From assembly GCA_016841905.1 (NCBI GenBank), contig JAENYF010000019.1, forward strand, positions 1-58,873: a stretch of DNA of 58,873 bases. The letters run 5' to 3'. Of this stretch, positions 17,112-53,950 are shown one piece after another (the stretch's first letter is position 1; the number at the start of each line of letters is the position of its first letter). A model generated the notes under the pieces. That model was not told the DNA's origin. It saw nothing but the letters and a program-made list of their open reading frames with translations, and ran no database searches. The stretch is from Desulfoscipio geothermicus (GTDB taxonomy: Bacteria > Bacillota > Desulfotomaculia > Desulfotomaculales > Desulfallaceae). A program made the translations under genes and the position numbers.

Positions 17112-17229
17112 GATCTGTACGCACAAAACGATAAATACATCATGCGCATTACCGGGGACAATGCGGAAGTGAAAAGCGCAGCTCGATTATTTCATTGATG
17201 AAGAAAGTACCTATCCCGTCATCGCGGTT
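17112..17229 (+). pseudogene. hsdR: Relic of a type I restriction HsdR (EcoKI-like) helicase region
   Basis: One frame reads YIMRITGDNAEVKS and, after a shift of frame near 17178, AQLDYFIDEESTYPVIAV. Together they match the conserved motor segment of EcoKI-type HsdR (ITGDN-E-KAQLDNFIDPES-YPVIAT). Only about 39 codons survive. The intact MntA/HepT pair follows immediately. Confidence 0.65.
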
Positions 17230-31059: not shown

Positions 31060-31097
31060 CGAGCTGCTGAATGTAATTGTGGGAGGAAGACATTGCC

Positions 31098-32276
31098 ATG
31101 AAAAATGAATTAGCTTTAAAGTATGGTTGTAACCCTAATCAGAAGCCATCCAGAATCTTTATGGAAGACGGAAGTGAGCTTCCTGTTACAGTATTAAATG
31201 GTAAGCCAGGATATATTAATTTCCTCGATGCCTTGAATGGCTGGCAGTTAGTATCTGAATTAAAGAATGCTACAGGACTTCCGGCAGCAACATCATTTAA
31301 ACATGTCTCACCAGCAGGTGCGGCAGTTGGACTTCCATTAACGGATGTTGAAAGAAAGATTTACTGGGTGGAGGAGGGCGAGTCAACACCACTTGCCAAT
31401 GCTTATGCAAGAGCAAGAGGCGCCGACAGAATGAGTTCATACGGAGATTTTATTTGTCTTTCCGACGTATGTGATGTTGCAACAGCAAAACTCATTAAGG
31501 TAGAAGTTTCTGATGGTGTCATCGCTCCAGGATTTGAGCCGGACGCTTTAGAAATCTTAAAGAGCAAGAAAAATGGTAATTACAACGTAATCCAGATTGA
31601 TTCTTCGTATCGTCCTGAGCCAATTGAGCGTAAGCAGCTATTTGGCATCTCCTTTGAGCAGGGAAGAAATGAATTAAAGATTGATCAGGATCTCCTTGAA
31701 AATGTAGTGACAGTGAACAAAGAAATTCCTGATTTAGCAAAGCTTGACCTGGTTATTGCATTAATTACCTTAAAATATACACAGTCAAATTCAGTATGTT
31801 ATGCAAAAGGTGGACAGGCCATCGGTATTGGTGCTGGACAGCAGTCAAGAATCCATTGTACGAGACTCGCTGGAAACAAGGCCGATAACTGGTTCCTTCG
31901 GCAGTCACCAAAGGTACTTGGCCTGCAATTCTTAAATGATATCAGACGTGCAGATAGAGATAATGCCATTGACCTGTATATTGGCGATGAATACCTGGAT
32001 GTACTTGCAGAGGGTAGATGGCAGAGTATCTTCAAAGTTAAACCTGAAGTGTTCACAAGAGAAGAAAGACGTGCCTGGTTAGATAAAATGACAGATGTAT
32101 CACTTGGTTCGGACGCCTTCTTTCCCTTTGGCGACAATATTGAACGTGCCCATAAAAGCGGTGTAAAATATATTGCCGAGCCAGGTGGATCGATTCGTGA
32201 TGATCATGTTATTGAAACATGTAACAAATATGGTATGGCCATGTGCTTTACAGGAATTCGTTTATTCCACCATTAA
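31098..32276 (+). CDS. Stand-alone AICAR formyltransferase (PurH transformylase part)
   Basis: 392 residues from ATG 31098; GGGAGGA 10 nt upstream. It matches the short clostridial form of phosphoribosylaminoimidazolecarboxamide formyltransferase, which lacks the N-terminal IMP cyclohydrolase domain of PurH (about 510 residues). Recognised blocks: LKYGCNPNQKPS, ATSFKHVSPAGAAVG (catalytic Lys-His), SSYGDFICLSD, KYTQSNSVCYAKGGQAIGIG and GDNIERAHKSGVKYIAEPGG. It converts AICAR to FAICAR with 10-formyl-tetrahydrofolate in purine synthesis. No other pur gene is near; the copy stands alone among accessory genes, so it may be a second copy or a metabolic graft. Confidence 0.93.
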   Translation: MKNELALKYGCNPNQKPSRIFMEDGSELPVTVLNGKPGYINFLDALNGWQLVSELKNATGLPAATSFKHVSPAGAAVGLPLTDVERKIYWVEEGESTPLANAYARARGADRMSSYGDFICLSDVCDVATAKLIKVEVSDGVIAPGFEPDALEILKSKKNGNYNVIQIDSSYRPEPIERKQLFGISFEQGRNELKIDQDLLENVVTVNKEIPDLAKLDLVIALITLKYTQSNSVCYAKGGQAIGIGAGQQSRIHCTRLAGNKADNWFLRQSPKVLGLQFLNDIRRADRDNAIDLYIGDEYLDVLAEGRWQSIFKVKPEVFTREERRAWLDKMTDVSLGSDAFFPFGDNIERAHKSGVKYIAEPGGSIRDDHVIETCNKYGMAMCFTGIRLFHH

Positions 32277-37669: not shown

Positions 37670-37735
37670 CTTCTCGGTGTCCGCTAGTAGGTTACCACAT
37701 CATATGGCAGGGTGTTCATGACGGTCTTCCCTATA

Positions 37736-37768
37736 AAGCCTACATTGTTTCTATGTAGGCTTTTTTTT
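37736..37768 (+). terminator. Intrinsic terminator
   Basis: AAGCCTACAT (37736-37745) pairs with ATGTAGGCTT (37753-37762) and continues into T37761-37768. No plus-strand gene ends in front of it; it may insulate the downstream cluster. Confidence 0.75.
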
Positions 37769-37863
37769 GAACACATACTTATCTCATAATTTACAAAATT
37801 TAACCCGATAATTCTATCATTAGTAACCATAAAATATAGTATTTTTAAAAATCTCGACCAGTT

Positions 37864-37894
37864 TTGACAAATTTTTATTATTACAAAGTATACA
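37864..37894 (+). promoter_or_regulatory. Probable promoter of the helicase/McrBC-like cluster
   Basis: TTGACA (37864-37869) and TATACA (37889-37894) with a long 19-nt spacer. A short hairpin CCTCT...AGAGG follows at about 37911-37930. The first gene starts 117 bp after the -10 box. Confidence 0.5.
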
Positions 37895-38010
37895 ATAGAT
37901 TTAATAAATATCCTCTTTAATGTAAGAGAGGTTAACAGCCCTTTTTATTAAGTAAAATATCATTTTCTGGGTTTACTTTAAGCCGTAAGAAATAACGGAG
38001 GATTTTGTAG

Positions 38011-38865
38011 ATGGATGAAGATAAATTACAGCATGAGCAATCGAGTGGTGTAAATAATTATATATTCAACGAACAGAATGAAATAGCAATAGGAAACACA
38101 ACAAACCTGTCAGACGATATAGAACCAATCATCGAAGACATGCTGTTATTTGCCTCAAATCTTCGCGAAGCTATCGAAAAACAGCAGCAATCAATATTAG
38201 ACTTACAGACATATGTTACCAAACTTAACAACAAAACAATAGAGCAACAATTATTAATTGATGCTCTGCAGAAAAAAGAAACTGAATTTAGAGAAATAAT
38301 CCAAAGTAAACAACGTAAAATTATTGAATTACAGCAGTACTATTATGATCTACTAGTCGATAAAACACAAGAAATAGATATAATGGATCATATTTTAACC
38401 ACAAGGGAAACTGACTTGGTTAAGTTAACTAGTGAATTGGAGATTGTAAATCATGAACTAAAAAGCACAAATGAATTGCTAACCGTAAAGGAAAAACTTC
38501 TAGTCAAAATAAATAAGGAATTCGATTCAGCAGATAAAGATTTAAAGATTAAAAATAAGAAGCTTCAGAAGACTGAAGCTGACCTGGCTAATGTAACGGA
38601 TGAATTGGCAAAGGCAAATCAAGAATTAACAAATAGAAGTATTCTACTTGCTGAAAAAGAAGAAGCGTTTAATGCTATTAGACAGGAATTAGAATTATTA
38701 AAGCAAGAAAAAGCAAATGAAAGGCGATCACTCATTGAGTTTAACAAGGTTAAAGAAAGCATGCGTAATATAATGCAACTGCTTCGGGGAAATAAAGATT
38801 CGGAGTTTATAGAAAGCGTTAACCCATTACATAAACAATCAAGCTTTAAGAAAGACCAGAAATAA
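38011..38865 (+). CDS. Coiled-coil protein, first gene of the defence-like cluster
   Basis: 284 residues; ATG 38011 with GGAGG 10 nt upstream. After 45 polar residues the protein is almost entirely coiled coil (about 45-260), rich in Glu, Lys, Leu and Asn, with heptads such as LTSELEIVNHELKSTNELL. No enzymatic motif, signal peptide or membrane helix. It is 21 bp ahead of the next gene. Coiled-coil partners next to AAA+/nuclease modules often act as sensors or assembly scaffolds; that role is inference here. Confidence 0.75.
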   Translation: MDEDKLQHEQSSGVNNYIFNEQNEIAIGNTTNLSDDIEPIIEDMLLFASNLREAIEKQQQSILDLQTYVTKLNNKTIEQQLLIDALQKKETEFREIIQSKQRKIIELQQYYYDLLVDKTQEIDIMDHILTTRETDLVKLTSELEIVNHELKSTNELLTVKEKLLVKINKEFDSADKDLKIKNKKLQKTEADLANVTDELAKANQELTNRSILLAEKEEAFNAIRQELELLKQEKANERRSLIEFNKVKESMRNIMQLLRGNKDSEFIESVNPLHKQSSFKKDQK

Positions 38866-38886
38866 ATTTCTTAAGATAGGTAGTCG

Positions 38887-41800
38887 ATGGTTGTGAAAAT
38901 TGATTATGCTAAGCATGAACGGCTGTCAGAAATAGATAAAAGCTTTGCTGCTCAAATAAGTGAGAAAGAAATTCGTTTATTAGGAGATTTGCTAATAACT
39001 CAAGAGCAATTTGACGAATTAACAGACCTTATAAGACACGTTATTCTAACTAATCAAAAGGCCATCCAAGTCAAATATGCTCTAGCCACAGCCATTTTTT
39101 TAGTTTGGTGTAGTGTATACTATTATAAAGACGGCACTTTTTGGGATCCTATTTTTTCAAAATTGAAGATCCCTTATAGCCTAAAGAAAGCCGAATTTTT
39201 AGGTGAAACGTTCCTAAAGGTTTCAAATAAATTTGGACTTCAGCAGATCTCAGCCACTGAAAGAACTAAAAAATATATGACCCCAATATTAATGCATGGC
39301 TATATAAGCGATTACTATGCCGGCAAGCTCCTTGACTACTTAAATGCAATCTATACGACATATTTAAAATATAATGTTACAGAACAAGCAATGGCAAGCC
39401 TATGGACTGACCTATTTAATTTGCATACTGAACAGATTTCTATTAAAAGCGAAATTGAAAAACTAGAAAAGCAAGAAAATCAATTAAAGTTAGCTATTCA
39501 GAAATACTCTGTTCCAGATAATTTACACAATATAAATCGGCTGATGCTCACTGAACATGAAGAAAATATATCTCAATTAAAACAAAATATTACTAACATA
39601 TTACCAAAGCTTAGTGAGCTTGATGAAGAAATCGAGCGCTATCAAATGATTGAAAAGGAATTAAAAGAATTCCAATGCATATTAGAAGAAATTAAGACTA
39701 TTGATCCGGCAGGATGGGCGGATGCTGCTTTAGAGAAATTAGTTCAGTTTCAACTGGAGAGTTCAGAATTAGTTAAGCACAAACTAGGGTACTTTAATGA
39801 ACAAAAAATTCACACAATTACAGAAAACAAGCACTTTGAAAGCCAATATGCTATAGAAACGGAAAAGATCAGAACGATAAAAACTAATATTTTTTACACT
39901 GGGGAAAGGCAAGGCAGAAGAAGGTTGGTCAATCTTAAATGACTTCCAGGAATTAAAGAAATCATTAGAAGTTGTCCAAGCTAAACTGATACAGAGACGG
40001 GAAATGCATCAGATGGAAGACTCTATAGAAAATTTAACCGTAAAACAAATTTTAACAACTTCATTAACACATCTAGCAGATGAAAATCCCGCACATTTTC
40101 AATTATTTATTAAGAGTACATTGAGAATGATTGATAGTGTGTCGAAAAACCAAATTATAGATGAAACTGATGAAACACACCGTATGTATAAACCGGTATA
40201 CCGCTGGTGGAATAGTTTAGGCAAAGAAAAAAAGAAACCGTCTGTAAAACCATCTTCAACTGATGAAATAGCTCAAAATGGACATATGCGTAAACTACAT
40301 AGCAATTGGCGATTAGAACGGCCAAAACTGCGTCAACCATCTCTAATCTACGATACGGTTGGACGTAATCTATATCTTAAAATACCTGAGCAGCAGTTAG
40401 CAGCACCAAAGGCTTTCTACGAAGAACCACATTTCATTTTAGAATATTCAGATTCACAGGAAAAAATAGTAGTAAATTACGTTATCGGAAAAAATAAAAT
40501 GTTGATACAGGAACAAAAAGTCTGTATCAATAGATCAGACATTAAACATTTAACCTTCCGGTGGCTTAGTATATCTGAATATTGGCCAATAAGCATAGAA
40601 CCGGTCATGTTATTTAATGATAAAACACAAGTTATGTTTGACCAAATTATGCCTAATGGTTATTACTACATTTTAGCACAAAAAAATTGGCAAACAGACG
40701 CACAACATATAATTGACCAATACGTTGGCGGACCTGATGATTACAGGATATATGAAGTCAAAATGGAAGAGTCGGAAATTAAATTTTGGTTGGATACTGC
40801 CAATAACTGTGAAACCTTGACTATTCAGTCTAGTCAATTTACAGGGATTGAATTAAAGGGAATTCAGTTTGTATCCGGTGTATTCATGGAAGGAACGCCG
40901 GTATGTTATGCTGCTTCGCCAGTAATGACGATTGGATACCAAACAATAGATACTCACCAACTAACGTTTTCTTTGTTTTATCAAGGAGTACTGCATATAC
41001 AAAGTCCAATTCACGTTATTTTTAACAAATATGGTAAGCAAATCTCACCACATGCGGCAGAGCTGGAATTAGAAAAAATAATCAACCAAAGGGTTCAACC
41101 CAATGTCGAAAAGATTCAAATTTCTATTACCGATCAACAGGATAAGGTGATATTTGGCAGATCCTTTTGCCGGGTAAGAGGTTTAAGTTTTACTTACAAC
41201 ACCTCAGAAATAGTCGTCAAAGTCCCTGCTGGAGCCCTTTTACAGCATCCTTATTCAATACAAGATGGCACCACTTACCATATTCCTATATCAGAGCAAT
41301 CCTTGACTGAAGTGGAAATCTATTTTAACCGATTTGGATGGAAGACTTTTCAATTAGAAACACCTATAGTGCAATATGAACTTAGAAACATTGAAAACCA
41401 AAAGCTGAACATTCCACTATGTTTATTGTATTCAGAAGCCGATAATCTCAAAGAGATTTATGTTGACTGGTCTACTTCAAGTGGCATCCCGGAGAAAGTC
41501 ATCCTTTTCGATGATGCGGAAAACTTAGTTAGTACCTTTAATCTTAGAAACGGCCAGGCAAGTGCACAACTAATTGGTTTTTACGATATCATTCGGGATT
41601 TGGCCGTTAACAGAAAAATTTATTTTCGTTGGGAAAGTAAAACCCGTATTTCACCAAATTTCTTACTGTTAGAAGTATTTCATAAGGTAGAAGTTACGGA
41701 ATGCACACTATTCCAGACAGAAAATGAAATGGATAACTTATTTGAAATTGGATATAAACTAAATTTTCCTTATTCCGGGCAGCTTATTATTCGTGTACGT

Positions 41801-42394
41801 GAAACAGAAAACTCAAATAATATTCTGCTTAATCAGGCCATAACGGATAATCCTTGTTATGTATATATTAATAAAGATGATACCACTGCTAATCTACTTA
41901 CCTTTGAATTATTTTATATGGAAAGTATTAAAAGCATTTTTGAAAACATAGAACAAGAAATAATTTGCTGGGAACGCGAAGAAAAAAGGATTCTAAAAAA
42001 AGCGGTAGTCAAAGAAATTTTAAAACGTGGACTGTTGATTAAAGCTTTTAATTACGAGCATAAGCAACACCTACTGCAGGATACATTTTGCATTGAACAA
42101 ATAACGATAGAAAACAAACATTTTGCAGAAGAAGAGATTTTTACAGGTATTTTTAAAGGCAAGAAAATTTCTACCGAGGTATATTTTTGTTTGGATATTG
42201 AAACACAAAAACTTCCTTTTTTGATTGATACTGACTATGATGGCGTACAATATCATCCCGTTACTGGCGAACTTTTTTGGGAATGCCGGAGCGATCCTGA
42301 AATTATGGCACCACTTGATGATTTGGAATATCTGATCAAGGAGGACACAGTTTATGAACCTAAATCCGGTGCTTTCATCGCAAAAGATTTTTGA
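38887..42394 (+). CDS. Large defence-associated protein, apparently split by one frameshift
   Basis: Two frames belong together. The first (38887-39942, 351 aa) has a helical N-terminal domain with FLVWCSVYYYKDGTFWDP and YMTPILMHGYISDYYAGKLL, then a coiled coil. Its last residues (GERQGRRRLVNLK) are nonsense. The frame of the second ORF is open from about 39896, where it reads KGKAEEGWSILNDFQELKKS into the ATG at 40004, and continues to 42394. Rejoined, the protein has about 1169 residues; the second half is beta-rich with no known enzyme motif. It overlaps the helicase gene by 41 bp. The size and pairing recall DruH, which precedes DruE in type III Druantia, but I cannot confirm homology. 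A sequencing indel near the T6 run at 39890-39895 is as likely as true decay. Confidence 0.6.
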
Positions 42395-45300
42395 AAAATA
42401 TGTCAGTTATATCACCACAACATTTAGATTAAAAGATGAATCGTTAAATCAACAGATTAATTCAGCATTAAATGATAAGTTTAGATTTTCCAAAGGACCA
42501 ATAATCGAGGCAACCCCACCTTTTAAAACAGGGAAGAGCCTACAACAACTAATAGATGAAGGTATCCTCACAAGCTCTTTTACAGAGCTAAAAGCAGCTT
42601 CACTGCCAATGGATAGAAACTTGTATCTGCATCAAGAAAAAACCATAATGAAAATTTGCCAAGAACATCGTAACGCCGTTGTGGCAACAGGAACAGGCAG
42701 TGGTAAAACTGAAGCCTTTATCATCCCCATTTTAAATCACCTTTTAACTGAAAAACAAAATCATAAACTTACCCCTGGTGTTCGAGCCTTACTGTTATAC
42801 CCCATGAATGCATTGGCCAACGACCAGATGAAGAGGTTGCGTGAACTTTTAAAAAATTGTCCGGAGATCACTTTTGGCATATATACAGGTGAAACAGAAG
42901 AAAAATATCGAGCAGCTTATGATAAATTTCAACGGATGCATCAGCAACCTCCGCTTCCTAATGAATTGATTTCCCGTGAACAGATGAGAGAAAGCCCACC
43001 ACAAATACTCTTAACCAACTATGCTATGCTAGAATACCTAATGCTGCGTCCAGCTGACAACATATTTTTTCAGGGTCCCTATTCAAATTGTTGGAAATTT
43101 ATAGTTATCGATGAAGCTCACACGTACACAGGTGCAAAAGGAATTGAAATGGCTATGCTTATTGCCCGTTTAAAGAGCACTATTGGCATAGAAGAAGGTC
43201 AACTTACCTGTATTATGACTAGCGCATCTCTCGGGAACGGCCAAGATGATTTTAGCCTGGTTGCAGATTTTGCCTCCAAAATATATCGGGAGCCGTTTGA
43301 ACCCGGAGACGTGATCGGTGCCACCAAAAGAACCTTTACTCATTCAGCTATTTGGGGAATTCCAGAACCAAATTTATATAAAAATATCAATCTGTGGTTA
43401 GCTTCTGTTGGTAAAGATAAGCAGGAACTGCGCAAAATTTTAGTGGAATGTCAAGTACCCGAAACGGCCATCGAACAGGCTTACCCTAAAGAAAATACGT
43501 ATGCGGATGGAGCATTATACCTCATCATGTCAGGTGATGGGCGTGTTGATCAAACTATCCGTAGTTTAGTTGATGGACCAATGGCTTTGGAAGAACTGGC
43601 TCAAAAGCTATTCCCAAACGACGAGCAGGCATCTTTAAATACCGCTCATCTCATTGACTTATGTAATCGGTTGCGCCGCCATGAGTATGAGCACTCTCTA
43701 TTACCGGCAAGATATCATTATTTAGTAAAAGCACTGGAGGGAGCCTTCATTGTTTTTACTGAACAGCCGAAAGTCTATTTGAGTCGCATTAACCAGGTAA
43801 CCATAGATCAAATGGATTATAAAGCTTTTGAAATTGGAGCCTGCAATAAGTGCAATAGCTTATACCTTGTTGGTGAGGTTTCACCGGGTAAAGATAAACC
43901 TTATCTTTACCTTTCTGAAACAAAAAACAGATATGCTGACGCTGAAAATGCTAACCTTGAATACTTTGCCTTACTTGAACAAGAAAATGAAATTGATCAG
44001 GAAAATGAAGATGTACTTTTAGAAAGTACACAGTTAAAAATACCACCTTTTTCAGTTTACCGACTGTGTGTGTACTGCGGTGCTATCCAACAGGATAATG
44101 GTACACCTATCTGTGATTGTGTCCACTCTAAAACAGTCCGCTTGTTAAAAGTTAACCATAAGAACCAAAAGGTCCACAAATGTGGGATTTGTGGTTCAAT
44201 TAATCCAATTTACAATATTGTCAGACGATTCTTTTTATCTGAAGATGCTGTTTCGAGCGTTTTGGCCACTACACTATATCAGGAACTGCCAAACAAACAG
44301 AAGGCTCAAGTGCACAATGACACTATGAAAAATGATCTCTTTGGATTTTTAGATAATGATACCGCAGATACACTAAAAACTGTTAATAGTCATAAACAAT
44401 TACTTGTTTTCTCAGACAGTCGGCAAAATGCGGCCTACTTTGCGCCTTATCTTAGCCGCACCTATAATGATTTGTTGATCAAAAATGCTATGGTTCGAAC
44501 TATTGAGTCACAGCATGACTTATGCATTGCGAACCGTTGGACCCTGGACGACTATTATTACCGAATCGATCGGTACGTTCGGGAAACAGCTTTTAGCAGC
44601 GCATCGGTGGAAACGTTGCGACGTGATATCTGGAAATGGATCATGCGTGAGTTTGCCTTTGTTTCTGGGGCCAATTCATTGGAAAATTTGGGACTTATTC
44701 ATTTTCAACCGAATTTTGATGGTGTTCCCGTAATTGATAATATATGGAGAATACCAGATTTAAAGAAATTTGGTTTTAAACAGGAAGAATTACCTATCTT
44801 ATATGAATATATTTTAGATCAGTTTAGAGTTAATCGGGCAATTGAATATCCCGAGTATGTATCTCCGCAAGATCCTGATTTTGCACCTCAAAATCAGCAG
44901 GGAGGTTTTTGGCGTCAAAAGCCAATAGGTGATGTACGATTCCCTCGAGGCTATTCATTAAAATCATGGTTGCCGGCACATGAACATTTTTCCAACATTA
45001 GAATGGATTTTTTAAAGAAAGTTTTATCTGCAGGAAGTGCTGAGGTGCAAAAGTCAACAGTCCAAGAGCTGTTGGATATTTTATGGGAATCAATGACCGA
45101 TTTAAGAAGTCCATTAGTTAAATATATAAAAAATGAGCTGCTTCCCAAGCTAGGAAAAATCTATAAACTTGATCCTCAAATATATTGCGTAGCACCAGGA
45201 ATGAATAATCCTGATGTAACCTATTATCAATGCGATACTTGTTTTAAAATATCAAAAACAAATTTACGTGATGTATGCCCAACTTACCGATGTGAAGGTA

Positions 45301-47189
45301 AGCTTCACATAATTGATTTGGATGAAAGATTTGGTGATAACCATTACCGGAATCTTTATTTGAACATTAAACCTGAGAAAATGGTAGCAAGTGAACATAC
45401 AGCCCAATTAACCACTGAATATGCAGCAGAAGTACAAAATCAATTTATCAATGGTGAAGTCAATGTACTAAGTTGTTCAACTACTTTTGAATTAGGTGTT
45501 GATGTAGGGGAACTGGAAACCGTTTTTATGAAAAACATGCCTCCCACACCAGCCAATTATGCACAACGGGCAGGGCGTGCAGGTCGTCGCACAGATTCCA
45601 CCGCTTATGCATTGACGTTTGCGCGCCTTTCATCACACGATTTTAACGGATTTAAAGATCCGTCTAAAATGATTAGTGGGGTGGTCAAACCACCTTATTT
45701 CGAAGTAGCTAACGAAAAAATAGCTCTACGCCACTTGTACGCCTGTGCATTTGCTCATTTTTGGCGTCAATACCCAAGTTATTTCAAAACGGTGAAAGAC
45801 TTTTTCATGAGTGAACCCGCAGGCCCAGCGTTGTTTCGCCAGTTTCTAGATAGTAAGCCCCAGGCACTCTTTGAAATGCTTCAAGAGGTAACTTCTGATG
45901 CAATCAAACACATGGTTAAATTAGAAAGTTGGGGTTGGGTTGACAATTTATATGGAAAACGTGGGCCGATGACTAAAGTAATCTCTGAACTCACCTATGA
46001 TTTAAGTAGCATCCAACAAGCTATTGATGATGCCCTGAAAAAGGAGCATTATGGCAAGGCAAATACGCTGTCACGTATCCGTAACACCATTACAGAAAGG
46101 CCATTGATCAATTACTTTTCTCAAAAAAACCTTTTGCCCAAATATGGATTCCCGGTGGATGTAGTAGGTCTGGATATAAATCTTCACACCGATGAAGCAA
46201 AGAATATTGACTTAAGTCGTGATTTGCAGATAGCCATCTCGGAATACGCACCGGAAAGCCAAGTCGTGGCTAATGGTAAGTTATGGACAAGCCGTTATGT
46301 GAAAAGGGTTGCCAACCGTGAACTTGTTCGATACAGTTATATCCAATGCCCATGTGGATTTTTCAGAAAAAATCTCGATTTAAAAGAAATTACTTATAGT
46401 AGTTGTCCGGTGTGTGGAAGTAAAAGGGTTCAAAAAGGTACTTTTGTAACACCTGAGTTTGGTTTCATTTCTGATAGTATTGTTGGTGAACCTGGTGATA
46501 CTAAACCAGAAAAAACCTATTCAAGTCGTAAGCATTTTTCAGGGTCAGGCGAGTATCTACAGGAAAAAACCATACTTGTGAGCAAAACTAGGATTGCCCT
46601 GAATACGCAGACACATGGCGTACTAACCGTAATTAATAGCGGAATCGGGTATGGGTTTTATTTATGCAAATTCTGTGGATATGGTAGCATACAGGGAAAA
46701 CCTAAAACTCATAATAATCCCAATGGAATTAAATGTTCCGGTAATTTTGAAAGGGTGTCATTAGGGTATGATTTTGAAACAGATATTCTTGAAATTAGTT
46801 TTATAGATAGAATTTGCGACAAGGAACCCCCAACAGGTTATTGGGAATCGCTGTTGTACAGTATCATTGAAGGCATGTCATCATCTTTGGAAATCAATAG
46901 GGATGATATTGATGGCACACTTCACATTAATAAAGATTTAACACGTTCAATGATTCTATTTGATACTGTACCAGGAGGTGCCGGACATGTTAAAAGGATG
47001 CTGAATGAAGAACAGTTTGTTAAGGCCTTAAAAGAAGCTCGTTCTATCGTAAGCAGCTGTACTTGCGGGGCAGAAAAGAAAGATACCAGTTGCTACAGTT
47101 GTTTGCGGAACTATCATAACCAATACTGCCATGATTATTTAAGAAGGATCTATGCCATTGATGCCCTAAATAAGGTCCTCGATGATTGA
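42354..47189 (+). CDS. Large DEAH-box helicase with C-terminal DUF1998-like cysteine domain (DruE-like)
   Basis: 1611 residues; ATG 42354 preceded by a perfect AAGGAGG. Superfamily 2 motifs in order: Walker A ATGTGSGKTEAF (about 115), LLLYPMNALANDQMKRL (Ia), IDEAHTYTGAKGIEM (DEAH, about 252), MTSASLG (III), LVFSDSRQNAAYF (IV), CSTTFELGVDVGELE (V) and QRAGRAGRRTDSTAYAL (VI, about 1071). Two zinc-type Cys clusters (CNKCNSLYL, CVYCGAIQ...CGICG) interrupt the core. The end has FDTVPGGAGHVKRM and CTCGAEKKDTSCYSCLRNYH, the DUF1998 Cys pattern. Such helicases include MrfA/YprA, DrmB-associated proteins and Druantia DruE; size and context favour DruE-like. It would move on DNA with ATP. Confidence 0.88.
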   Translation: MNLNPVLSSQKIFEKYVSYITTTFRLKDESLNQQINSALNDKFRFSKGPIIEATPPFKTGKSLQQLIDEGILTSSFTELKAASLPMDRNLYLHQEKTIMKICQEHRNAVVATGTGSGKTEAFIIPILNHLLTEKQNHKLTPGVRALLLYPMNALANDQMKRLRELLKNCPEITFGIYTGETEEKYRAAYDKFQRMHQQPPLPNELISREQMRESPPQILLTNYAMLEYLMLRPADNIFFQGPYSNCWKFIVIDEAHTYTGAKGIEMAMLIARLKSTIGIEEGQLTCIMTSASLGNGQDDFSLVADFASKIYREPFEPGDVIGATKRTFTHSAIWGIPEPNLYKNINLWLASVGKDKQELRKILVECQVPETAIEQAYPKENTYADGALYLIMSGDGRVDQTIRSLVDGPMALEELAQKLFPNDEQASLNTAHLIDLCNRLRRHEYEHSLLPARYHYLVKALEGAFIVFTEQPKVYLSRINQVTIDQMDYKAFEIGACNKCNSLYLVGEVSPGKDKPYLYLSETKNRYADAENANLEYFALLEQENEIDQENEDVLLESTQLKIPPFSVYRLCVYCGAIQQDNGTPICDCVHSKTVRLLKVNHKNQKVHKCGICGSINPIYNIVRRFFLSEDAVSSVLATTLYQELPNKQKAQVHNDTMKNDLFGFLDNDTADTLKTVNSHKQLLVFSDSRQNAAYFAPYLSRTYNDLLIKNAMVRTIESQHDLCIANRWTLDDYYYRIDRYVRETAFSSASVETLRRDIWKWIMREFAFVSGANSLENLGLIHFQPNFDGVPVIDNIWRIPDLKKFGFKQEELPILYEYILDQFRVNRAIEYPEYVSPQDPDFAPQNQQGGFWRQKPIGDVRFPRGYSLKSWLPAHEHFSNIRMDFLKKVLSAGSAEVQKSTVQELLDILWESMTDLRSPLVKYIKNELLPKLGKIYKLDPQIYCVAPGMNNPDVTYYQCDTCFKISKTNLRDVCPTYRCEGKLHIIDLDERFGDNHYRNLYLNIKPEKMVASEHTAQLTTEYAAEVQNQFINGEVNVLSCSTTFELGVDVGELETVFMKNMPPTPANYAQRAGRAGRRTDSTAYALTFARLSSHDFNGFKDPSKMISGVVKPPYFEVANEKIALRHLYACAFAHFWRQYPSYFKTVKDFFMSEPAGPALFRQFLDSKPQALFEMLQEVTSDAIKHMVKLESWGWVDNLYGKRGPMTKVISELTYDLSSIQQAIDDALKKEHYGKANTLSRIRNTITERPLINYFSQKNLLPKYGFPVDVVGLDINLHTDEAKNIDLSRDLQIAISEYAPESQVVANGKLWTSRYVKRVANRELVRYSYIQCPCGFFRKNLDLKEITYSSCPVCGSKRVQKGTFVTPEFGFISDSIVGEPGDTKPEKTYSSRKHFSGSGEYLQEKTILVSKTRIALNTQTHGVLTVINSGIGYGFYLCKFCGYGSIQGKPKTHNNPNGIKCSGNFERVSLGYDFETDILEISFIDRICDKEPPTGYWESLLYSIIEGMSSSLEINRDDIDGTLHINKDLTRSMILFDTVPGGAGHVKRMLNEEQFVKALKEARSIVSSCTCGAEKKDTSCYSCLRNYHNQYCHDYLRRIYAIDALNKVLDD

Positions 47190-47540
47190 GGTAATTTATA
47201 TGGATTCGGTGTTATTAATGTCAATTAAAAGTTGCTAATAGTGAATCCGATAAGTTTTCTTTTACGGAGTTTATAAAAAATTTTAAGATCCAAGATAAAT
47301 TTGAGTAATTAGGCAGTATATAGAAGGTATTGCAAAAGGAGATGGTTTTTGCTGACTGGGGTGCTGAAAACTGCTGGTTAGAGACCCTTCTAGGGTACAG
47401 GTATTTACTATAATGGCAGACATCTTAAATTAAATTTTTTATTTTTATGTAAACTGACAAAGGGTGGTAATAATTAATTTGTATAATTAAGTTAGGCCAT
47501 CAAAATGATGGCCTAACTAATTAATAGGGGGTATACAATC
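47190..47540 (+). promoter_or_regulatory. Intergenic region with hairpin between the two modules
   Basis: GTTAGGCCATC (47491-47501) is the exact inverse of GATGGCCTAAC (47507-47517); flanking AT pairs lengthen the stem to about 17. It ends 23 bp before the next start codon. A TATAAT (47482-47487) sits just ahead without a good -35. It may mark a terminator of the first module or control the second; it is the only large gap inside the cluster. The rest (47190-47480) holds short scraps and no gene. Confidence 0.45.
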
Positions 47541-48659
47541 ATGAAAGAGATTTTAAGATGGTATTCCAATACTCTTGATAAGGATAAGCTAAATAAATTT
47601 TTTAGATTAACCGGCATTGAAATTCCAGGCTTCAGAAAAAAGGTAGATAAAGCACCTGTGCAGATCATGCGAAAGAAATTTAGCGGTGTTTGTATTGATG
47701 TTCCACGCGATAGGTTGATGTCCTTTTTATCTATCCTAAATGAAGAGCTTTATGACGAGATAAACGAGTTAAGCATAGCTGAAATCATGGCAGAAGAAAT
47801 AGAACTAATCGGAAAATACAATTTACCTGACTATGTATTGGGTTTGCTGGCCATGTCGGAGATGGAGGATTTTGATCATATCAATGAACATATTAACCAG
47901 CTGATCATTGATGTTGACCAGCAAGAAAATCAAATTGATGATGTTGATGCTAAAGAAACATTGGTTGATATTAATGCCACAACAGAAAAAGAAAGTAAAA
48001 TCTTAAGAAAAAAACTTAAAGATAAAACTCAGCAATTAGAACAAGCCACTAATCAAATTCAGAAATTAAATAGCACAATAACTAGAATTAAAGAAAAAAA
48101 TAAAAAACAGCTGGGAGATATGGCCAAAGCCTACGAACGAACAAATACAGAGCTTGAAGAAGCAATAACATCCCAGAATGAAGCGTTGAATCGAAAAAGA
48201 AAGTTAGAAGTACAGCTTGGAGAAATGAATAATGCCATAAATCAGTTAACTACTGAGAATGAGGGGCTTAAAAAGAAGTTGGCTGAACAAGAAGTTTTGT
48301 TAAATATCTGGCAGGCAAAACATCCTGGGGAGAAACTTAATAATAAAACGCTGCGAGTTATTTTCCTGGGAGACAAGTCTAACCGAGTAATAAACGTTGT
48401 TTCGGGAGTGGTTGTAGATAAAACCTGTGTTGATTTTGATGATGTAGATGTGATTTGCAGTAGCGAGGATCATATCAAGGAGTATGATGTAGCATTTTTA
48501 TTATCCAGTCGGTGTACCTTTGAGCAGCGGCGAAAGATACTAAAAAATTTTAACAGCTGTCAAATTAAAATTAATGAGATACCTAATATAAAAAGCAGTG
48601 AAGATATTATAAATCAATTAATAACCGATCTTTCTAAAGATAAAAGACGTGCCATTTAG
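47541..48659 (+). CDS. Coiled-coil protein with DUF2325-like C-terminal domain
   Basis: 372 residues. The N-terminal 150 residues are a mixed alpha domain (LRWYSNTLDKDKLNKFFRLT), residues 155-265 a coiled coil (KLKDKTQQLEQATNQIQKLN), and residues 275-372 a small Rossmann-like domain: TLRVIFLGDKSNRVINVVSG, then DVAFLLSSRCTFEQRRKILK. The last part resembles DUF2325-type domains. It starts the second module and is 21 bp before the McrB-like gene. Coiled-coil partners of McrBC-like nucleases are known from CoCoNuT-type systems, where they are thought to help recognise targets; the likeness is of architecture only. Confidence 0.65.
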   Translation: MKEILRWYSNTLDKDKLNKFFRLTGIEIPGFRKKVDKAPVQIMRKKFSGVCIDVPRDRLMSFLSILNEELYDEINELSIAEIMAEEIELIGKYNLPDYVLGLLAMSEMEDFDHINEHINQLIIDVDQQENQIDDVDAKETLVDINATTEKESKILRKKLKDKTQQLEQATNQIQKLNSTITRIKEKNKKQLGDMAKAYERTNTELEEAITSQNEALNRKRKLEVQLGEMNNAINQLTTENEGLKKKLAEQEVLLNIWQAKHPGEKLNNKTLRVIFLGDKSNRVINVVSGVVVDKTCVDFDDVDVICSSEDHIKEYDVAFLLSSRCTFEQRRKILKNFNSCQIKINEIPNIKSSEDIINQLITDLSKDKRRAI

Positions 48660-48680
48660 TTTCCAAGGAGGACAATGTAA

Positions 48681-50717
48681 ATGAGTGAAGAGTTGAACTG
48701 TATTTTGGTTGGTATTCTAGCTGAACCAGAAGACCTTATGCTTGAAAGAGATTTTGTTGTATTTGTTAATAGTATTAATGAGCTTCAGTTTGCCTTAAAG
48801 ATAATATCTGATGGACCTGATTTTTTACCTTTAGATAAACCAATAACTTGTTATGCCAACAAATTTACTGATTATGACTTTATCGATAACTATTATGATG
48901 AGCTGCCTATGAGGGCTAAGTCTTTTGAAGATTTCATTAAGGATAAAGTGGTCTTATTTCGCCCTGTTCAACAATATAAAAAAGGTGAGATTTTATATTC
49001 TGCTGAGCCTGTTATGGTTTTACCGAAGCCCCCTAGCATAAATAGGAATAGCAGGCTAATCCCTATGCTTTATTTGAATGAGAGAGACTACGAAGATTGC
49101 GATAAGCTAATTGTAAACAGACAACCTGTAGGACCATTCCGCTATTTCCCTGGACAAATGCCTATAGCAGATCCTATTTATATCCATATTAATGGTTATT
49201 TATATGGAGATTTTGCTTTTAGGGTAGAAAGGCATAATAAGTGGCTCTTTAATTATAAAAATAACCTAAAGCGTGTTCAATGCGACTTTTTTGAATATGA
49301 AAATGTAATTACCTATAAAGATGTAGCATTTGTTGAATCTTATTTATACCTGCAGGATTTCGCAAAACTATTAGAAGCTGATGGTGAAAAGGTAGAAATC
49401 TTAGATGCACCCTTACCCAAAGATGTTCAGTTTGATCCAGGTACTAAAAAAGAAATTGAGCATAGTGCTGATGTTCATGCCAAGTCGCCAAAGACAGCTG
49501 CCGTGAAAGTCATTGATGCATTGGAACCCGGCTTGCAAGGAGTCATAAATGATGCTACTGGTAATCAAGAGGAACCGGTAATGGGAGTCGGCTTAGAAGA
49601 AGTCGAGTTTATCAACAGGTTAATTAAACACTGTCGTTTATCAGGTCTGCTTTATGATGAGGATGATTTATATAATTTCCATATAGACTTAAAGATCAAT
49701 AATTTTGTTATTATTGCCGGCATGTCGGGAACAGGGAAATCAAGGTTGGTTGATTTATACGCTGAAGCACTGGGATTAACCCGGGATGATTCCCAGGGCA
49801 GGTTCAGTTTTATACCGGTAAGGCCAACATGGACAGATGAAACGGATTTAATTGGTTTTTTGGACACCTCCAATAACATATATAGACCGGCGGATACTGG
49901 TTTGCTGAACCTCTTGTTGGAAGCGGAAAAAAACTGGGACAAACTGTATCTGGTGTGCTTTGATGAAATGAATCTGGCCAGAATAGAACATTATTTTGCT
50001 CAGTTCTTAAGTGTTTTGGAACTCCCCGCAGAAAAGCGGGTGCTGCAATTATATAATCCTGAAATGGCAGAACGTGTATATAATTCTCACCAATATCCAC
50101 CTCAGGTCAAGCTTGGTCGCAATGTATTAATGGTGGGAACGGTTAACATTGATGAATCAACTTACGCATTTAGCGATAAAGTACTGGACCGGGCCAGCAT
50201 ACTTCGTTTAAAGGTGTTGCCTTTTGTCAGGTTGGCTGAGTTAATTGAAGGGTTGAAAACCAATACACCCAATATAAATCCAGAAATTTTAGCCACACAA
50301 TACCTCAACTGGGTAAACCAAAGCGGATTTTCGCTTAATGCAAGTGAAAATGAGTTTTTGTATAAATTACACGAGATAATTAACAAAGTTGATGCCAGAA
50401 AAGGTATTGGTTATCGCAGCCTGCGTCATATAGATGATTACTTGCGCAATATACCCCGGCATGAACAGGGGCCCATTTTAAATCGCGCGAAAGCTTTTGA
50501 CTATCAGCTTGTGCAAAAGGTACTTCCTATGTTGCGCGGGTCACAGGAACAATTGCTCAAATTAATTGGTATTTATAATGAAACGACGGATGAGGTAGAA
50601 GATAGCGAAATTTTGAAATTGATGGATGAATACAACAATATCAGCGATTATAGTTACAGCCGCGCTGAAATTAAGCAGAAAGCCAAGGAATTAAGGTGGT
50701 TTGGTTATGCATCCTGA
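48681..50717 (+). CDS. McrB-like AAA+ GTPase/ATPase
   Basis: 678 residues. AAGGAGG lies upstream of ATG 48681. The N-terminal 320 residues are a probable target-binding region with no family recognised. The AAA+ domain follows: Walker A IAGMSGTGKSRLVDLYAEA (about 346), Walker B with the McrB signature VCFDEMNLARIEHYFAQ (about 427), and GTVNIDESTYAFSDKVLDRA (sensor/arginine-finger part). Family members form rings that translocate DNA or RNA and drive the McrC-type nuclease, whose gene overlaps this one by 11 bp. The DEMNLAR motif makes the McrB assignment firm. Confidence 0.9.
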   Translation: MSEELNCILVGILAEPEDLMLERDFVVFVNSINELQFALKIISDGPDFLPLDKPITCYANKFTDYDFIDNYYDELPMRAKSFEDFIKDKVVLFRPVQQYKKGEILYSAEPVMVLPKPPSINRNSRLIPMLYLNERDYEDCDKLIVNRQPVGPFRYFPGQMPIADPIYIHINGYLYGDFAFRVERHNKWLFNYKNNLKRVQCDFFEYENVITYKDVAFVESYLYLQDFAKLLEADGEKVEILDAPLPKDVQFDPGTKKEIEHSADVHAKSPKTAAVKVIDALEPGLQGVINDATGNQEEPVMGVGLEEVEFINRLIKHCRLSGLLYDEDDLYNFHIDLKINNFVIIAGMSGTGKSRLVDLYAEALGLTRDDSQGRFSFIPVRPTWTDETDLIGFLDTSNNIYRPADTGLLNLLLEAEKNWDKLYLVCFDEMNLARIEHYFAQFLSVLELPAEKRVLQLYNPEMAERVYNSHQYPPQVKLGRNVLMVGTVNIDESTYAFSDKVLDRASILRLKVLPFVRLAELIEGLKTNTPNINPEILATQYLNWVNQSGFSLNASENEFLYKLHEIINKVDARKGIGYRSLRHIDDYLRNIPRHEQGPILNRAKAFDYQLVQKVLPMLRGSQEQLLKLIGIYNETTDEVEDSEILKLMDEYNNISDYSYSRAEIKQKAKELRWFGYAS

Positions 50718-52521
50718 TGGATTATCTTTCCGCGTCATTTTGCACATTGGCAGCAAAGAAAAGAATTATTTCATTCCGTTAAACAGTTTTTGCAGCAAAG
50801 AAAAAGACGCCGTTATTGATTCCACATATTTATTGGAATTTAGTTATGTGAGTTTGGAATTTACTCCGGGCGATGGTATTGAAATACCGGATAATGCCCG
50901 GTTATACATGGACGGGCTGGATGGTTTGGGTAACCACCAAATTAAGCGCGATTATGACGGGGCCTACCTTGATTGTCCTAGTAATATGCCTCTATACAAC
51001 CAGATAGAAAACTATCCCTGGATTCCCGGTCAGTATCGAGTGAAGGTGATCTGGGGGGATAGTTCGTATTTCACCATATTAAAAGTTAAGGCTAAGCAAA
51101 TCAGTGATCGTCAACTAGAGGTTATGCGGCAAGAATTGGAGGACTGTGTTAGAGGTTTAGCTATTGATGTGGCTTTGCCCAGGCGTGGTCTAGGTACTTC
51201 CGACATTATGCAAGCTTTGCCGGTGCTTTTTTATCAGTATAGCTTGTTGGAAAAAGAATTTCCGCGGCTTTATTCCGGTGTGCTGGATATTTTACAAAAG
51301 CCCCACCAACAAGTAATTAAGGAACATGATATAGTTCCTGAACATAAGGCCAGGGTTTGGGATAATCGCACTTTATATTGGTTGAACTCTGAACATGGCA
51401 TGCGAAAGAACGGCGGTTCAAACCGGCGTCCCAAATATGTCCTGGCGCCGCGAAGTAAAATAAATTATGATTTGTCCGAAAATCAATGGCTTAAAAAAAT
51501 ACTCTTCGGTTTTATCCAGGTATGCAGCCGGATTCAAAAAGCAATTGAAAACACACTTAACCTTAAAAAAGGTGTATTAACAGAAGAAGAACGATACATG
51601 CCGGGTCATGCAAGTATACTCAAGCGCAGGCAAAAAGAAATCGATCATTTGTATAAAGATCTGGAACGCTGTAATAGACTGCAGGGGCGTCTATGGCAGC
51701 TATTAAATCATCATTTCTTCACTGGTGTTAAAAGCAAAATAGGTCTTATCCCCATAACCCCCGGCTTATTACAGGATTATCGATATTTTGGTGTTTTTCG
51801 GTTTTGGCAGCAATTATGCCTGAATTCTGAAATACAGGTACAGTCTGCAACTGAGTATCAGTGGAAACGCTCTGATTTGCTTTACGAATATTGGATTTTC
51901 GTTAAAATGTTGGAAATTTTAAAGAAGATCGGGTTTCAACCCGTGGAAGGTTGGATTTATTCCAACACATGGAGATTTGGCGAGCCCATGTTTATACCCA
52001 GCATTGAACCGGATACCAAAGTAAGCTTAACGAAAGGTAAATGGCGTTTTGATTTAATATACGATCAAAGTATACCTTACGAGAGTAAAATAGCGAGCGA
52101 GAAGGGCATTCCCATATGGAGTGAAAACGAGAACAACAGGCCCGATTTGCGTCTGGATGTTTATGACCATGAAGAATATTCTCAATCCTTCATTTTCGAG
52201 GTGAAATATCGCAAGCTTCAAAATGTGTGGAATACTTTGGTGGAAAATGACCGAAGAAAATGGACTGAGAACATGCGCCAGCTACTAAATTACCGCATCG
52301 GTTTATCCAGTGTTACTGATTATAGAATCAGGCCGGTAGATGAAGTAATCGCGTTTTACCCCGGTGATAATGCCAATGATGCGCAGTTAACAATAGATAA
52401 ATATAGAATTACGCTGATAAAATTCAGGCCGGGTGGGGATAACCAGCATGTATTAGCCTATTTAAGAGATAGCTTGTTCAAAAAAATAATAGAGGACGAT
52501 GAAAAAGAAGCGATTGTTTAG
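50707..52521 (+). CDS. DUF2357/McrC-like PD-(D/E)XK nuclease
   Basis: 604 residues from ATG 50707, with AAGGTGG upstream; TTG 50701 adds two residues. The N-terminal half is the DUF2357-type region with beta strands. The nuclease core is near residues 440-500: WRFDLIYDQS, NRPDLRLDVYDHEEYS and FIFEVKYRKLQN, i.e. D...D...E-x-K of the PD-(D/E)XK fold. Its 5' end overlaps the McrB-like gene by 11 bp, the usual McrBC-type pairing. It ends the cluster. Likely cuts nucleic acid when driven by the AAA+ partner. Confidence 0.87.
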   Translation: MHPDGLSFRVILHIGSKEKNYFIPLNSFCSKEKDAVIDSTYLLEFSYVSLEFTPGDGIEIPDNARLYMDGLDGLGNHQIKRDYDGAYLDCPSNMPLYNQIENYPWIPGQYRVKVIWGDSSYFTILKVKAKQISDRQLEVMRQELEDCVRGLAIDVALPRRGLGTSDIMQALPVLFYQYSLLEKEFPRLYSGVLDILQKPHQQVIKEHDIVPEHKARVWDNRTLYWLNSEHGMRKNGGSNRRPKYVLAPRSKINYDLSENQWLKKILFGFIQVCSRIQKAIENTLNLKKGVLTEEERYMPGHASILKRRQKEIDHLYKDLERCNRLQGRLWQLLNHHFFTGVKSKIGLIPITPGLLQDYRYFGVFRFWQQLCLNSEIQVQSATEYQWKRSDLLYEYWIFVKMLEILKKIGFQPVEGWIYSNTWRFGEPMFIPSIEPDTKVSLTKGKWRFDLIYDQSIPYESKIASEKGIPIWSENENNRPDLRLDVYDHEEYSQSFIFEVKYRKLQNVWNTLVENDRRKWTENMRQLLNYRIGLSSVTDYRIRPVDEVIAFYPGDNANDAQLTIDKYRITLIKFRPGGDNQHVLAYLRDSLFKKIIEDDEKEAIV

Positions 52522-52710
52522 AATCTTACAATATATTGGGTATACTTACGAACATTATTTTTCTTTAGAAATTATAATAACATAAGGTTTTTTAGGTTGC
52601 TGTCGGCATTACTCTTGACTATAAGATGATGGTGCGTGAAGCTAGGTTTAGAGTAATTTAAAATGAATATGGGGACTCTGACCATAGTAAAAAAAAGAGA
52701 AAGGGTGAAA

Positions 52711-53883
52711 ATGATGAATGCTTTCGTATATGATATTCCAACAAAAGTATATTTCGGTGAAAACCAACTAAAACACCTGGGCGCCGAATCAAGCAAATTC
52801 GGCAAAAAAGTACTTTTGACTTATGGTGGAGGTTCCATCAAGAAGTTTGGGCTTTATGACAAAATTATTGAGGAGATAAATAAAGCAGGTTTAGAGCTTT
52901 ATGAATTGTCCGGAATTGACCCAAATCCAAGAGTATCCTCCGTAAACGCAGGTGCTGATATATGCAAGAAAGAAAATATAGATGTTCTTCTTGCTGTAGG
53001 TGGAGGATCGGTTATAGATTGTACAAAATATATTGGTGCGGCTGCTTATTATGATGGAGATGCCTGGGATATCCTGCTTAAGAAGGTCCCGGTAAAAAAA
53101 TGCCTGCCCATCATTACCGTGCTAACCCTGGCAGCAACGGGTTCTGAAATGGATGCTGGCGGCGTTATCAGCAATCCCGAAACAAATGATAAAATTGGTC
53201 TGATTTTTCCTGTCATGCAACCTAAGGTTTCCTTCTTGGATCCAACACTCACCTATACTGTGAACAAATTCCATACAGCATGTGGAGCCGCAGATATACT
53301 AAGCCACATCTTTGAAGTGTATTTTAGTATGGACCAGGATTTGTATATGCTGGATTGTGTTATGGAAGGTCTTATGAAGACCGTCCTAAAGTATACGCCG
53401 GTTGCCCTGGCAGAACCTGAAAATTATGAAGCACGTGCCAATCTGATGTGGGCCTCTTCATGGGCGATCAATGGCTTTATCAATGGCGGCAAGCGTCAGG
53501 CATGGAGCTGTCATCCCATGGAACATGAGCTCTCGGCATTTTACGATATTACACACGGACTGGGGCTTGCCATACTGACGCCAAGATGGATGGAATATAC
53601 TCTAAATGAAAATACAGTAAGTAAATTCTATCATTTTGGCGTAAATGTATTTGGTATTGATGAGTCCTTACCACATATGGAAGCCGCTAAGAAGAGTATT
53701 GATTTGCTTAAAGAATTCTTCTTTGAGACTTTAGGGCTGCAGAGTACCCTTACTGAAATTGGTATCGATGATGCAAACTTTAAAATTATGGCCAAGAAAG
53801 CTGCAACTTTGGGGAGCACCAAATATGCCTTCCAGCCTTTAGCAGCTGAAGATATTGAAAAGATATTCAGGATGTGTTTGTAA
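52711..53883 (+). CDS. Iron-containing alcohol dehydrogenase (butanol dehydrogenase-like)
   Basis: 390 residues from ATG 52711 (AAAGGGTG upstream). The typical start is MNAFVYDIPTKVYFGENQL. The NAD(P)-binding loop is VLLAVGGGSVIDCTK. The metal site is AADILSHIFEVYF, with Asp and His, then WSCHPMEHELSAFYDITHGL, with two further His. Also seen is LTLAATGSEMD. It fits the BdhA/YqhD branch of group III dehydrogenases, which reduce aldehydes with NAD(P)H. Alone with its own promoter region; unrelated to the defence-like cluster. Confidence 0.93.
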   Translation: MMNAFVYDIPTKVYFGENQLKHLGAESSKFGKKVLLTYGGGSIKKFGLYDKIIEEINKAGLELYELSGIDPNPRVSSVNAGADICKKENIDVLLAVGGGSVIDCTKYIGAAAYYDGDAWDILLKKVPVKKCLPIITVLTLAATGSEMDAGGVISNPETNDKIGLIFPVMQPKVSFLDPTLTYTVNKFHTACGAADILSHIFEVYFSMDQDLYMLDCVMEGLMKTVLKYTPVALAEPENYEARANLMWASSWAINGFINGGKRQAWSCHPMEHELSAFYDITHGLGLAILTPRWMEYTLNENTVSKFYHFGVNVFGIDESLPHMEAAKKSIDLLKEFFFETLGLQSTLTEIGIDDANFKIMAKKAATLGSTKYAFQPLAAEDIEKIFRMCL

Positions 53884-53950
53884 GATAGGTATTCTATGTC
53901 ACTTCGAATCACCACTGGTTGGAGGATGAGTATGCCGTACCCGGGTACTA

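What the first reader, a model, noticed from the sequence alone, without database searches (positions are those of the whole stretch)
37864..52521. Composite cluster joining a DruE-like helicase module to an McrBC-like coiled-coil module
Seven same-strand frames (six likely genes) combine a coiled-coil protein, a large DruH-sized protein, a 1611-residue DEAH helicase with DUF1998-type Cys residues, a second coiled-coil protein with a DUF2325-like end, an McrB-type AAA+ protein with the DEMNLAR motif, and a DUF2357 PD-(D/E)XK nuclease. The cluster is AT-rich and lies near restriction relics and a WYL regulator. Each half resembles a known defence class (Druantia; McrBC/CoCoNuT), but I do not know a described system with this whole gene set. 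A new combined defence system is the inference.
Basis: partly seen in the sequence, partly recalled or inferred. Interest (0 to 1): 0.88.

Follow-up and report, generated by a model that had tools for sequence, protein, structure and literature searches.

The report
Two neighbouring bacterial anti-phage gene modules
Six bacterial genes that look like one new anti-virus system are better read as two already-described kinds of defence module sitting side by side, one of them with an interrupted gene in this genome assembly.

Summary
The gene set is real. At 38,011-52,521, + strand, lie a coiled-coil gene (cc1), a large gene split here into two frames, a 1,611-aa DruE/YprA-type DEAH helicase without a C-terminal nuclease, then CnuA-, CnuB- and CnuC-like genes (coiled coil; NxD McrB-type GTPase; DUF2357-PD-(D/E)xK). 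The second half fits the described Type I-B CoCoNuT layout. The first half is a Druantia type III-like pair: a large upstream protein with distant similarity to DruH, plus DruE.

The halves are separable. Of 24 loci with relatives of this helicase, 0 have a CnuA/B/C match. Of 12 strong CnuB loci and 7 plasmid loci, 0 have a DruE match. In 398 genomes of the phylum, 54 have a CnuB-like match, 43 a DruE match and 9 both (5.8 expected); only the window has an intact pair within 10 kb. The one other full copy found is in Sporotomaculum syntrophicum, same genus. Druantia III beside CoCoNuTs is already in print (PMC11090510).

So this is a new pairing of known kinds of module, probably layered defence, not a new system. 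The bolder reading, that CnuC supplies the nuclease missing from this DruE, is not excluded but unlikely.

The parts
38011..38865 (+). cc1: 284-aa coiled-coil protein, accessory gene of the first module
   Evidence: ORF; coiled-coil type matches only (none in PADLOC); 84% identical counterpart in S. syntrophicum; no match labelled cc1 in 24 other DruE loci, by blastp with low-complexity masking
38887..42394 (+). gene 2: DruH-like large partner, split here into two ORFs (38887-39942 and 40004-42394); a single 1,166-aa ORF in the relative
   Evidence: distant similarity to DruH by profile comparison with controls
42354..47189 (+). DruE-like YprA-family DEAH helicase, 1,611 aa, ends 27 aa after the MZB/DUF1998 domain (no C-terminal nuclease)
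   Evidence: PADLOC DruE1 4.7e-185, DruE3 8.5e-153; Pfam; best solved relatives 9tu7 and 9wae; tree
47490..47518 (.). perfect palindrome with 13-bp arms just upstream of cnuA, perhaps an operator or a 5' UTR hairpin
   Evidence: single match in the window with up to 3 mismatches, 0 in 100 shuffles; the only place in each of the two genomes that carry the cluster, none in three other genomes of the genus
47541..48659 (+). CnuA-like coiled-coil protein, 372 aa, first gene of the Type I-B CoCoNuT-like module
   Evidence: position and predicted coiled coil; 14-18% identity to the corresponding plasmid proteins and no tblastn match among them, so assigned by place and coil
48681..50717 (+). CnuB-like McrB-type GTPase with NxD motif, 678 aa
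   Evidence: (PDC-M26A 3.6e-44)
50701..52521 (+). CnuC-like McrC: DUF2357 plus PD-(D/E)xK nuclease, 606 aa
37711..53891 (.). DNA block shared with S. syntrophicum although the flanks differ; includes an iron-containing alcohol dehydrogenase gene (52663-53883) that does not look like defence

Best explanation
Two autonomous defence modules stand head to tail. Module A (cc1, gene 2, DruE) is a Druantia type III-like system: gene 2 is probably the infection sensor (DruH-like) and the YprA-type helicase acts on phage replication intermediates. Module B (CnuA, CnuB, CnuC) is a Type I-B CoCoNuT: the McrB-type GTPase assembles with the DUF2357 protein, which stimulates it and carries a PD-(D/E)xK nuclease, under control of the coiled-coil CnuA. 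They most likely act as layers, Druantia-like DNA defence first and CoCoNuT second, as proposed for CoCoNuT superoperons. Shown here: gene content, motifs, separability and co-retention in two species. Inferred from families and papers: sensor role, enzymatic activities, layering and defence itself. In this assembly gene 2 is interrupted, so module A may be inactive here unless that is an assembly error.
For: Motifs and families. Module A alone: 0 of 24 DruE loci have a CnuA/B/C match; 20 of 24 have an ORF of 900 aa or more directly upstream on the same strand, and in 14 of 24 an ORF with a blastp match to gene 2 is present. Module B alone: 12 of 12 strong CnuB loci have a CnuC downstream, 0 of 12 a DruE match, and 9 of 12 an ORF of 329-461 aa directly upstream; 7 of 7 plasmid loci have the order small ORF-AAA-nuclease and 0 of 7 a tblastn match to DruE at E<=0.001 within 8-9 kb flanks. 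Spacing: genes overlap or lie 21 bp apart within modules; the gap between modules is 351 bp here and 236 bp in the relative. Precedent: PMC11090510 sections 8 and 11 part 1; PMC12458937 sections 5, 8, 26.
Against: Both modules and the alcohol dehydrogenase stay together in two species whose flanks differ. No consensus sigma-70 promoter was found between the modules (0, against a mean of 2.5 in shuffles) and the palindrome lacks a T-run, so one transcript is not excluded. PADLOC has no DruH match for gene 2 at E<=1 and the PDB DruH chain is not matched. The receiver and pyrin-like ends of CnuA and the cold-shock/YTH parts of CnuB could not be seen.
Confidence: 0.8

Rival explanations
1. One composite system: the nuclease-less DruE hands its substrate to CnuC, with cc1 and CnuA as coiled-coil couplers.
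For: DruE ends just after MZB; CnuC keeps PD...ExK; cc1 seen only in the two genomes that have both halves; dN/dS between the two species 0.16 for druE, 0.15 cnuB, 0.17 cnuC.
Against: 24 other DruE loci have no CnuC match; 12 strong CnuB loci and 7 plasmid loci have no DruE match; intact adjacency found only in one genus. Searches with low-complexity masking may have missed cc1 relatives.
Confidence: 0.1
2. A decaying island: module A is dead in this strain and only module B works. This is compatible with the two-module reading.
For: Gene 2 is split in the window; higher dN/dS for gene 2 (0.36-0.44) and cc1 (0.38) than for druE.
Against: DruE is intact with dN/dS 0.16; an assembly error is possible; DruH is reported as more divergent than DruE (PMC13192584 section 13), so fast change need not mean decay.
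Confidence: 0.25
3. DNA repair or housekeeping genes, not defence.
For: YprA helicases also have repair branches (PMC12458937 section 5).
Against: Patchy presence: DruE in 43 of 398 and CnuB-like in 54 of 398 genomes; plasmid-borne relatives; low G+C.
Confidence: 0.04

Closest known systems
Type I-B CoCoNuT (CnuA, CnuB, CnuC; PMC11090510)
   Same: Separate coiled-coil gene, NxD McrB-type GTPase and DUF2357-nuclease; mainly Bacillota
   Different: Terminal domains of CnuA and the N-terminal domains of CnuB could not be verified; here it follows a Druantia-like module
Druantia type III (DruH-DruE; PMC13192584, PMC13316683) and the Druantia type III-like YprA branch (PMC12458937)
   Same: Two-gene order, large partner immediately upstream of a YprA-type helicase; distant partner similarity to DruH; absence of a nuclease domain is stated as commonest in the III-like branch
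   Different: DruE lacks the C-terminal PLD nucleases and lies in a clade apart from E. coli DruE; partner not recognised by PADLOC; extra coiled-coil gene cc1. Whether this clade is the III-like branch of the preprint was not checked
Druantia types I and II, called Type IV CoCoNuT (PMC12458937)
   Same: A YprA-type helicase near a CnuB homologue
   Different: There the CnuB homologue is described as inactivated; here CnuB keeps its motifs and belongs to a separate three-gene module
CoCoNuT superoperons with DNA restriction systems and Druantia III (PMC11090510 section 11 part 1)
   Same: DNA-acting system upstream, CoCoNuT last, same strand
   Different: [quoted passage not shown] this is Type I-B-like

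Membership tests
Type I-B CoCoNuT | McrB-type GTPase with NxD motif | tested here: met
   N489-x-D491 invariant in 8 of 8 sequences
Type I-B CoCoNuT | Separate coiled-coil protein encoded with CnuB and CnuC | tested here: met
   Coil 135-260, the confident part of the model; a small ORF directly upstream of CnuB in 7 of 7 plasmid loci and 9 of 12 strong phylum loci. Sequence similarity between these proteins is low, 14-18%
Type I-B CoCoNuT | CnuC with DUF2357 and PD-(D/E)xK | tested here: met
   PF09823 2.2e-12, PF04411 3.4e-6; PD and ExK aligned. Ig-like N-terminal domain not tested
Type I-B CoCoNuT | CnuA with pyrin/CARD-like N-terminus and receiver C-terminus | tested here: inconclusive
   AlphaFold pLDDT below 50 at both ends with 3 sequences; no such Pfam match
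Type I-B CoCoNuT | CnuB N-terminus with cold-shock and often YTH-like domains, no fused coiled coil | tested here: inconclusive
   Model pLDDT 31.9; no family match to the N-terminal 300 residues beyond the alignment to PDC-M26A
Druantia type III | DruE: YprA-type helicase with MZB/DUF1998 | tested here: met
   best solved relative 9tu7, a 2,108-aa DEAD/DEAH helicase, 1.2e-142, which I take for the E. coli DruE from its length and its accession next to DruH 9tud
Druantia type III | DruH encoded with DruE | tested here: inconclusive
   No PADLOC DruH match and 9tud (DruH) not among the PDB matches at E<=10; hhalign of 21 gene-2 relatives with 7 DruH: E 2.3e-5, probability 76; a 9-sequence subset gave only E 0.047; 12 reversed or unrelated controls gave E 0.14-0.95
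Druantia type III | DruE with C-terminal PLD nuclease domains | tested here: not met
   Protein ends 27 aa after MZB
Druantia type III | DruE groups with type III DruE in a tree | tested here: not met
   In a midpoint-rooted tree of 34, own clade of 23 (support 1.00) apart from the one E. coli DruE included
Druantia types I/II (Type IV CoCoNuT) | Inactivated CnuB homologue next to DruE | tested here: not met
   Walker A, Walker B and NxD intact

The most novel reading that the evidence does not exclude
A true hybrid: a Druantia-like helicase that lost its nuclease uses the CnuC nuclease of a neighbouring Type I-B CoCoNuT, with cc1 and CnuA as coiled-coil adaptors, so that sensing by gene 2 licenses cutting by the CoCoNuT.
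Probability: 0.08. Interest if true: 0.75.

Novelty: new member of a known kind. Interest (0 to 1): 0.3.

Why it matters
It shows that a striking six-gene defence cluster can be a pairing of two separable modules, and gives a concrete case of a Type I-B-like CoCoNuT behind a nuclease-less Druantia-like module. It also points to a large DruH-like partner family, without a match in the Pfam and PADLOC searches made here, that stands beside the helicase in many genomes of the phylum. If the helicase and CnuC do cooperate, it would answer how nuclease-less Druantia helicases finish their job.

Tried and rejected
Rejected: one conserved six-gene system. Rejected: Druantia I/II with inactive CnuB. 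Rejected: WYL regulator as part of the unit, because it lies outside the shared DNA block.

Led nowhere: AlphaFold of CnuA gave only the coiled coil; AlphaFold of CnuB gave pLDDT 31.9, and no fold search was run on either. The single-protein scan of genome contigs with CnuB found only the S. syntrophicum copy; its peptide patterns lay outside the most conserved stretches. A viral-contig scan found 3 CnuB relatives and one with the DruE alignment found 14; of these only L152 and L155 were used. tblastn of gene 2 against plasmids gave no match. Local profile searches of CnuB and CnuC against the partners of two cyanobacterial DruE, gene 2 and cc1 gave no match. The promoter scan between the modules found none. 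The PADLOC label PDC-M26A was not found in the paper library.

Rows dropped: more distant YprA-type loci L017 and L019-L026 were left out of the 24-locus count; the tblastn found no CnuA/B/C match in any of L013-L026. CnuB-like matches weaker than 1e-100 (41 of 54 genomes) were not opened, except G092. In G092 a broken DruE fragment lies 4.7 kb from such a CnuB-like gene; it was counted among the 9 genomes with both but not as an intact pair. In two of the 12 strong CnuB loci (L129, L130) the CnuB frame itself is in two pieces.
Full report
What is there. The window is contig C23 of a 3.08 Mb draft genome. Its closest relative found with the cluster is Sporotomaculum syntrophicum FB, record NZ_LSRS01000005.1, by length the same contig as G004:C5 (481,389 bases in both listings), placed in the same genus by the genome search. 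On the + strand lie cc1, gene 2 (split), DruE, cnuA, cnuB and cnuC. In S. syntrophicum gene 2 is one ORF of 1,166 aa and the other five genes are present in the same order. cc1 and gene 2 lie 21 bp apart, gene 2 and druE overlap by 41 bp, cnuA and cnuB lie 21 bp apart, and cnuB and cnuC overlap by 17 bp; between druE and cnuA there are 351 bp here and 236 bp in the relative.

Second module. CnuB matches PADLOC candidate PDC-M26A (3.6e-44) and the solved McrB structures. Walker A, the FDEMNLAR Walker B region and the N-x-D motif are present; the N and D are invariant in 8 of 8 aligned proteins. CnuC has DUF2357 and PDDEXK_7, with PD and ExK aligned to its relatives. The gene before CnuB encodes a coiled-coil protein, modelled with confidence mainly over residues 135-260. 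The paper on CoCoNuTs describes this layout as Type I-B: a separate coiled-coil CnuA, an NxD GTPase and CnuC, mainly in Bacillota (PMC11090510, sections 7 and 8 read). On plasmids the order small ORF-AAA-nuclease was seen in 7 of 7 loci that I opened (7 of the 40 listed rows, itself 40 of 266 records). The small ORFs share only 14-18% identity with cnuA and give no tblastn match to it, so they correspond by place and coil. In a sample of 398 genomes of the phylum, 12 others have a strong CnuB match (E below 1e-100). Of these 12, 12 have a CnuC downstream and none a DruE match in the fetched stretch, and 9 have an ORF of 329-461 aa directly upstream.

First module. The helicase matches PADLOC DruE models of several types, DruE1 best (4.7e-185) and DruE3 next (8.5e-153). 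The E. coli DruE scores 2,180 bits on its own DruE3 model but also 574 on DruE1, so the window's 616 and 509 bits do not assign a type. It ends 27 residues after the MZB domain. In a midpoint-rooted tree of 34 sequences it falls in a clade of 23 (support 1.00), all from this genus or from other genomes of the phylum, apart from the E. coli DruE and two cyanobacterial ones. A preprint states that YprA helicases of the Druantia type III-like branch most often lack a nuclease (PMC12458937 section 8). I could not check that this is the same branch.

Gene 2. It lies directly upstream of DruE. In 20 of 24 other DruE loci an ORF of 900 aa or more stands in that place on the same strand; the exceptions are two near contig ends (L013, L107) and two with ORFs of 538 and 464 aa (L018, L114). 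Direct blastp finds a gene-2 relative in 14 of 24. An alignment of nine such proteins, five of them without a direct blastp match, is homologous to a ten-sequence gene-2 alignment by profile comparison (E 1.6e-49). No Pfam family at E<=0.05 and no PADLOC DruH model at E<=1 matches (NCBIfam was run only on the two pieces in the window, with coiled-coil type matches). A comparison of 21 relatives with 7 DruH proteins gives E 2.3e-5 and probability 76 over part of the central region; a ten-sequence subset gives E 2.4e-5, the nine-sequence subset only E 0.047 in another region, and 12 reversed or unrelated controls E 0.14-0.95. Against a single DruH sequence the two subsets gave E 0.61 and 0.059. 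I read gene 2 as DruH-like, with moderate confidence. In E. coli, DruH is reported as the likely infection sensor, with Ig-like domains and a dimer-dependent nuclease activity (PMC13192584 section 13 read).

Are the halves one system? Of 24 loci with relatives of DruE, 0 have CnuA, CnuB or CnuC matches, although flanks are short in some (1 to 13,979 bases a side). In the 398 genomes, 54 have a CnuB-like match at E<=1e-30, 43 a DruE match at E<=1e-40, and 9 both, against 5.8 expected. Of the 9, the pair lies within 10 kb in two: the window, and G092, where the DruE piece is a broken fragment. Of the 13 genomes with strong CnuB, only the window's has DruE. None of the 7 plasmid loci has a tblastn match to DruE. 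The window and S. syntrophicum share a block at 37711-53891 of 94-95% identity (88% over its first 291 bases) with different flanks; transposase-like ORFs stand in its upstream part in S. syntrophicum. That identity is about that of other stretches compared: 94% over 10.9 kb of the trp region, with smaller pieces at 79-95% in the same call, 94% over the rpoB locus and 92-95% over the three main pieces on contig C6. So long co-retention is likely. However, synonymous divergence in the cluster is 0.10-0.19 against 0.275 for rpoB, so later exchange is not excluded. dN/dS is 0.15-0.17 for druE, cnuB and cnuC and 0.35-0.44 for cnuA, cc1 and gene 2, against 0.05 for rpoB.

Regulation. A perfect 13-bp-arm palindrome stands at 47490-47518, just before cnuA. 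It occurs at one place in each of the two genomes with the cluster and not in three other genomes of the genus. It has no T-run, and no consensus promoter was found between the modules. A terminator-like site lies upstream of cc1 at 37735-37763.

Mechanism. Most likely module A senses infection through gene 2 and acts on phage DNA intermediates with the helicase, while module B is a GTP-driven nuclease complex (McrB-type GTPase stimulated by the DUF2357 protein). The order, DNA-acting system first and CoCoNuT last, fits the layered scheme proposed in PMC11090510 section 11 part 1. All activities are inferred from families; nothing here shows defence directly. If gene 2 is really interrupted, module A may be inactive in this strain.

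Novelty. In the library searched, four papers hold both 'Druantia' and 'CoCoNuT': the CoCoNuT paper, its preprint, the YprA preprint, and a study of P. aeruginosa that I saw only in the listing. In the parts I read I saw no Type I-B CoCoNuT next to Druantia, but figures and supplements were not seen. The pairing may therefore be new; the parts are of known kinds.

Papers: PMC11090510, passages (including from the abstract) and sections 7, 8, 11 (part 1); PMC12458937, abstract, passages and sections 5, 8, 26; PMC13192584, abstract and sections 5, 13; PMC13316683, abstract and outline only; others only in listings.

Noticed in passing
window 38887-42394: Gene 2 is split into two ORFs in different frames; the S. 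syntrophicum counterpart is a single ORF. Real inactivation or assembly error not decided.
   Followed up: partly
window 31077-32276: Partial AICARFT/IMPCHase (purH) ORF whose DNA matches several places in S. syntrophicum (C3, C4 and C5) at 95-97%, as if this stretch were multiplied.
   Followed up: no
window 52663-53883: Iron-containing alcohol dehydrogenase gene lies inside the shared block right behind the defence genes; the identity to the relative ends just after its stop codon.
   Followed up: partly
L017 3074-14942: In another genome of the order (G035), a UG21-type defence reverse transcriptase lies between a DrmMI-like methylase and a DruE/YprA-like helicase split into two ORFs, an unusual array.
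   Followed up: no
L131 (G092:C12) 10569-17169: Broken C-terminal DruE fragment about 4.7 kb from a more distant CnuB-like gene, possibly a relic of another pairing.
   Followed up: partly
window 20293-20640: 115-aa HNH restriction-enzyme-like fragment (PADLOC HNH 1.5e-16).
   Followed up: no
window 22664-25681: 1,005-aa fusion of CheB methylesterase, CheR methyltransferase and PAS domain, followed by a PAS histidine kinase.
   Followed up: no
[quoted passage not shown]
   Followed up: no
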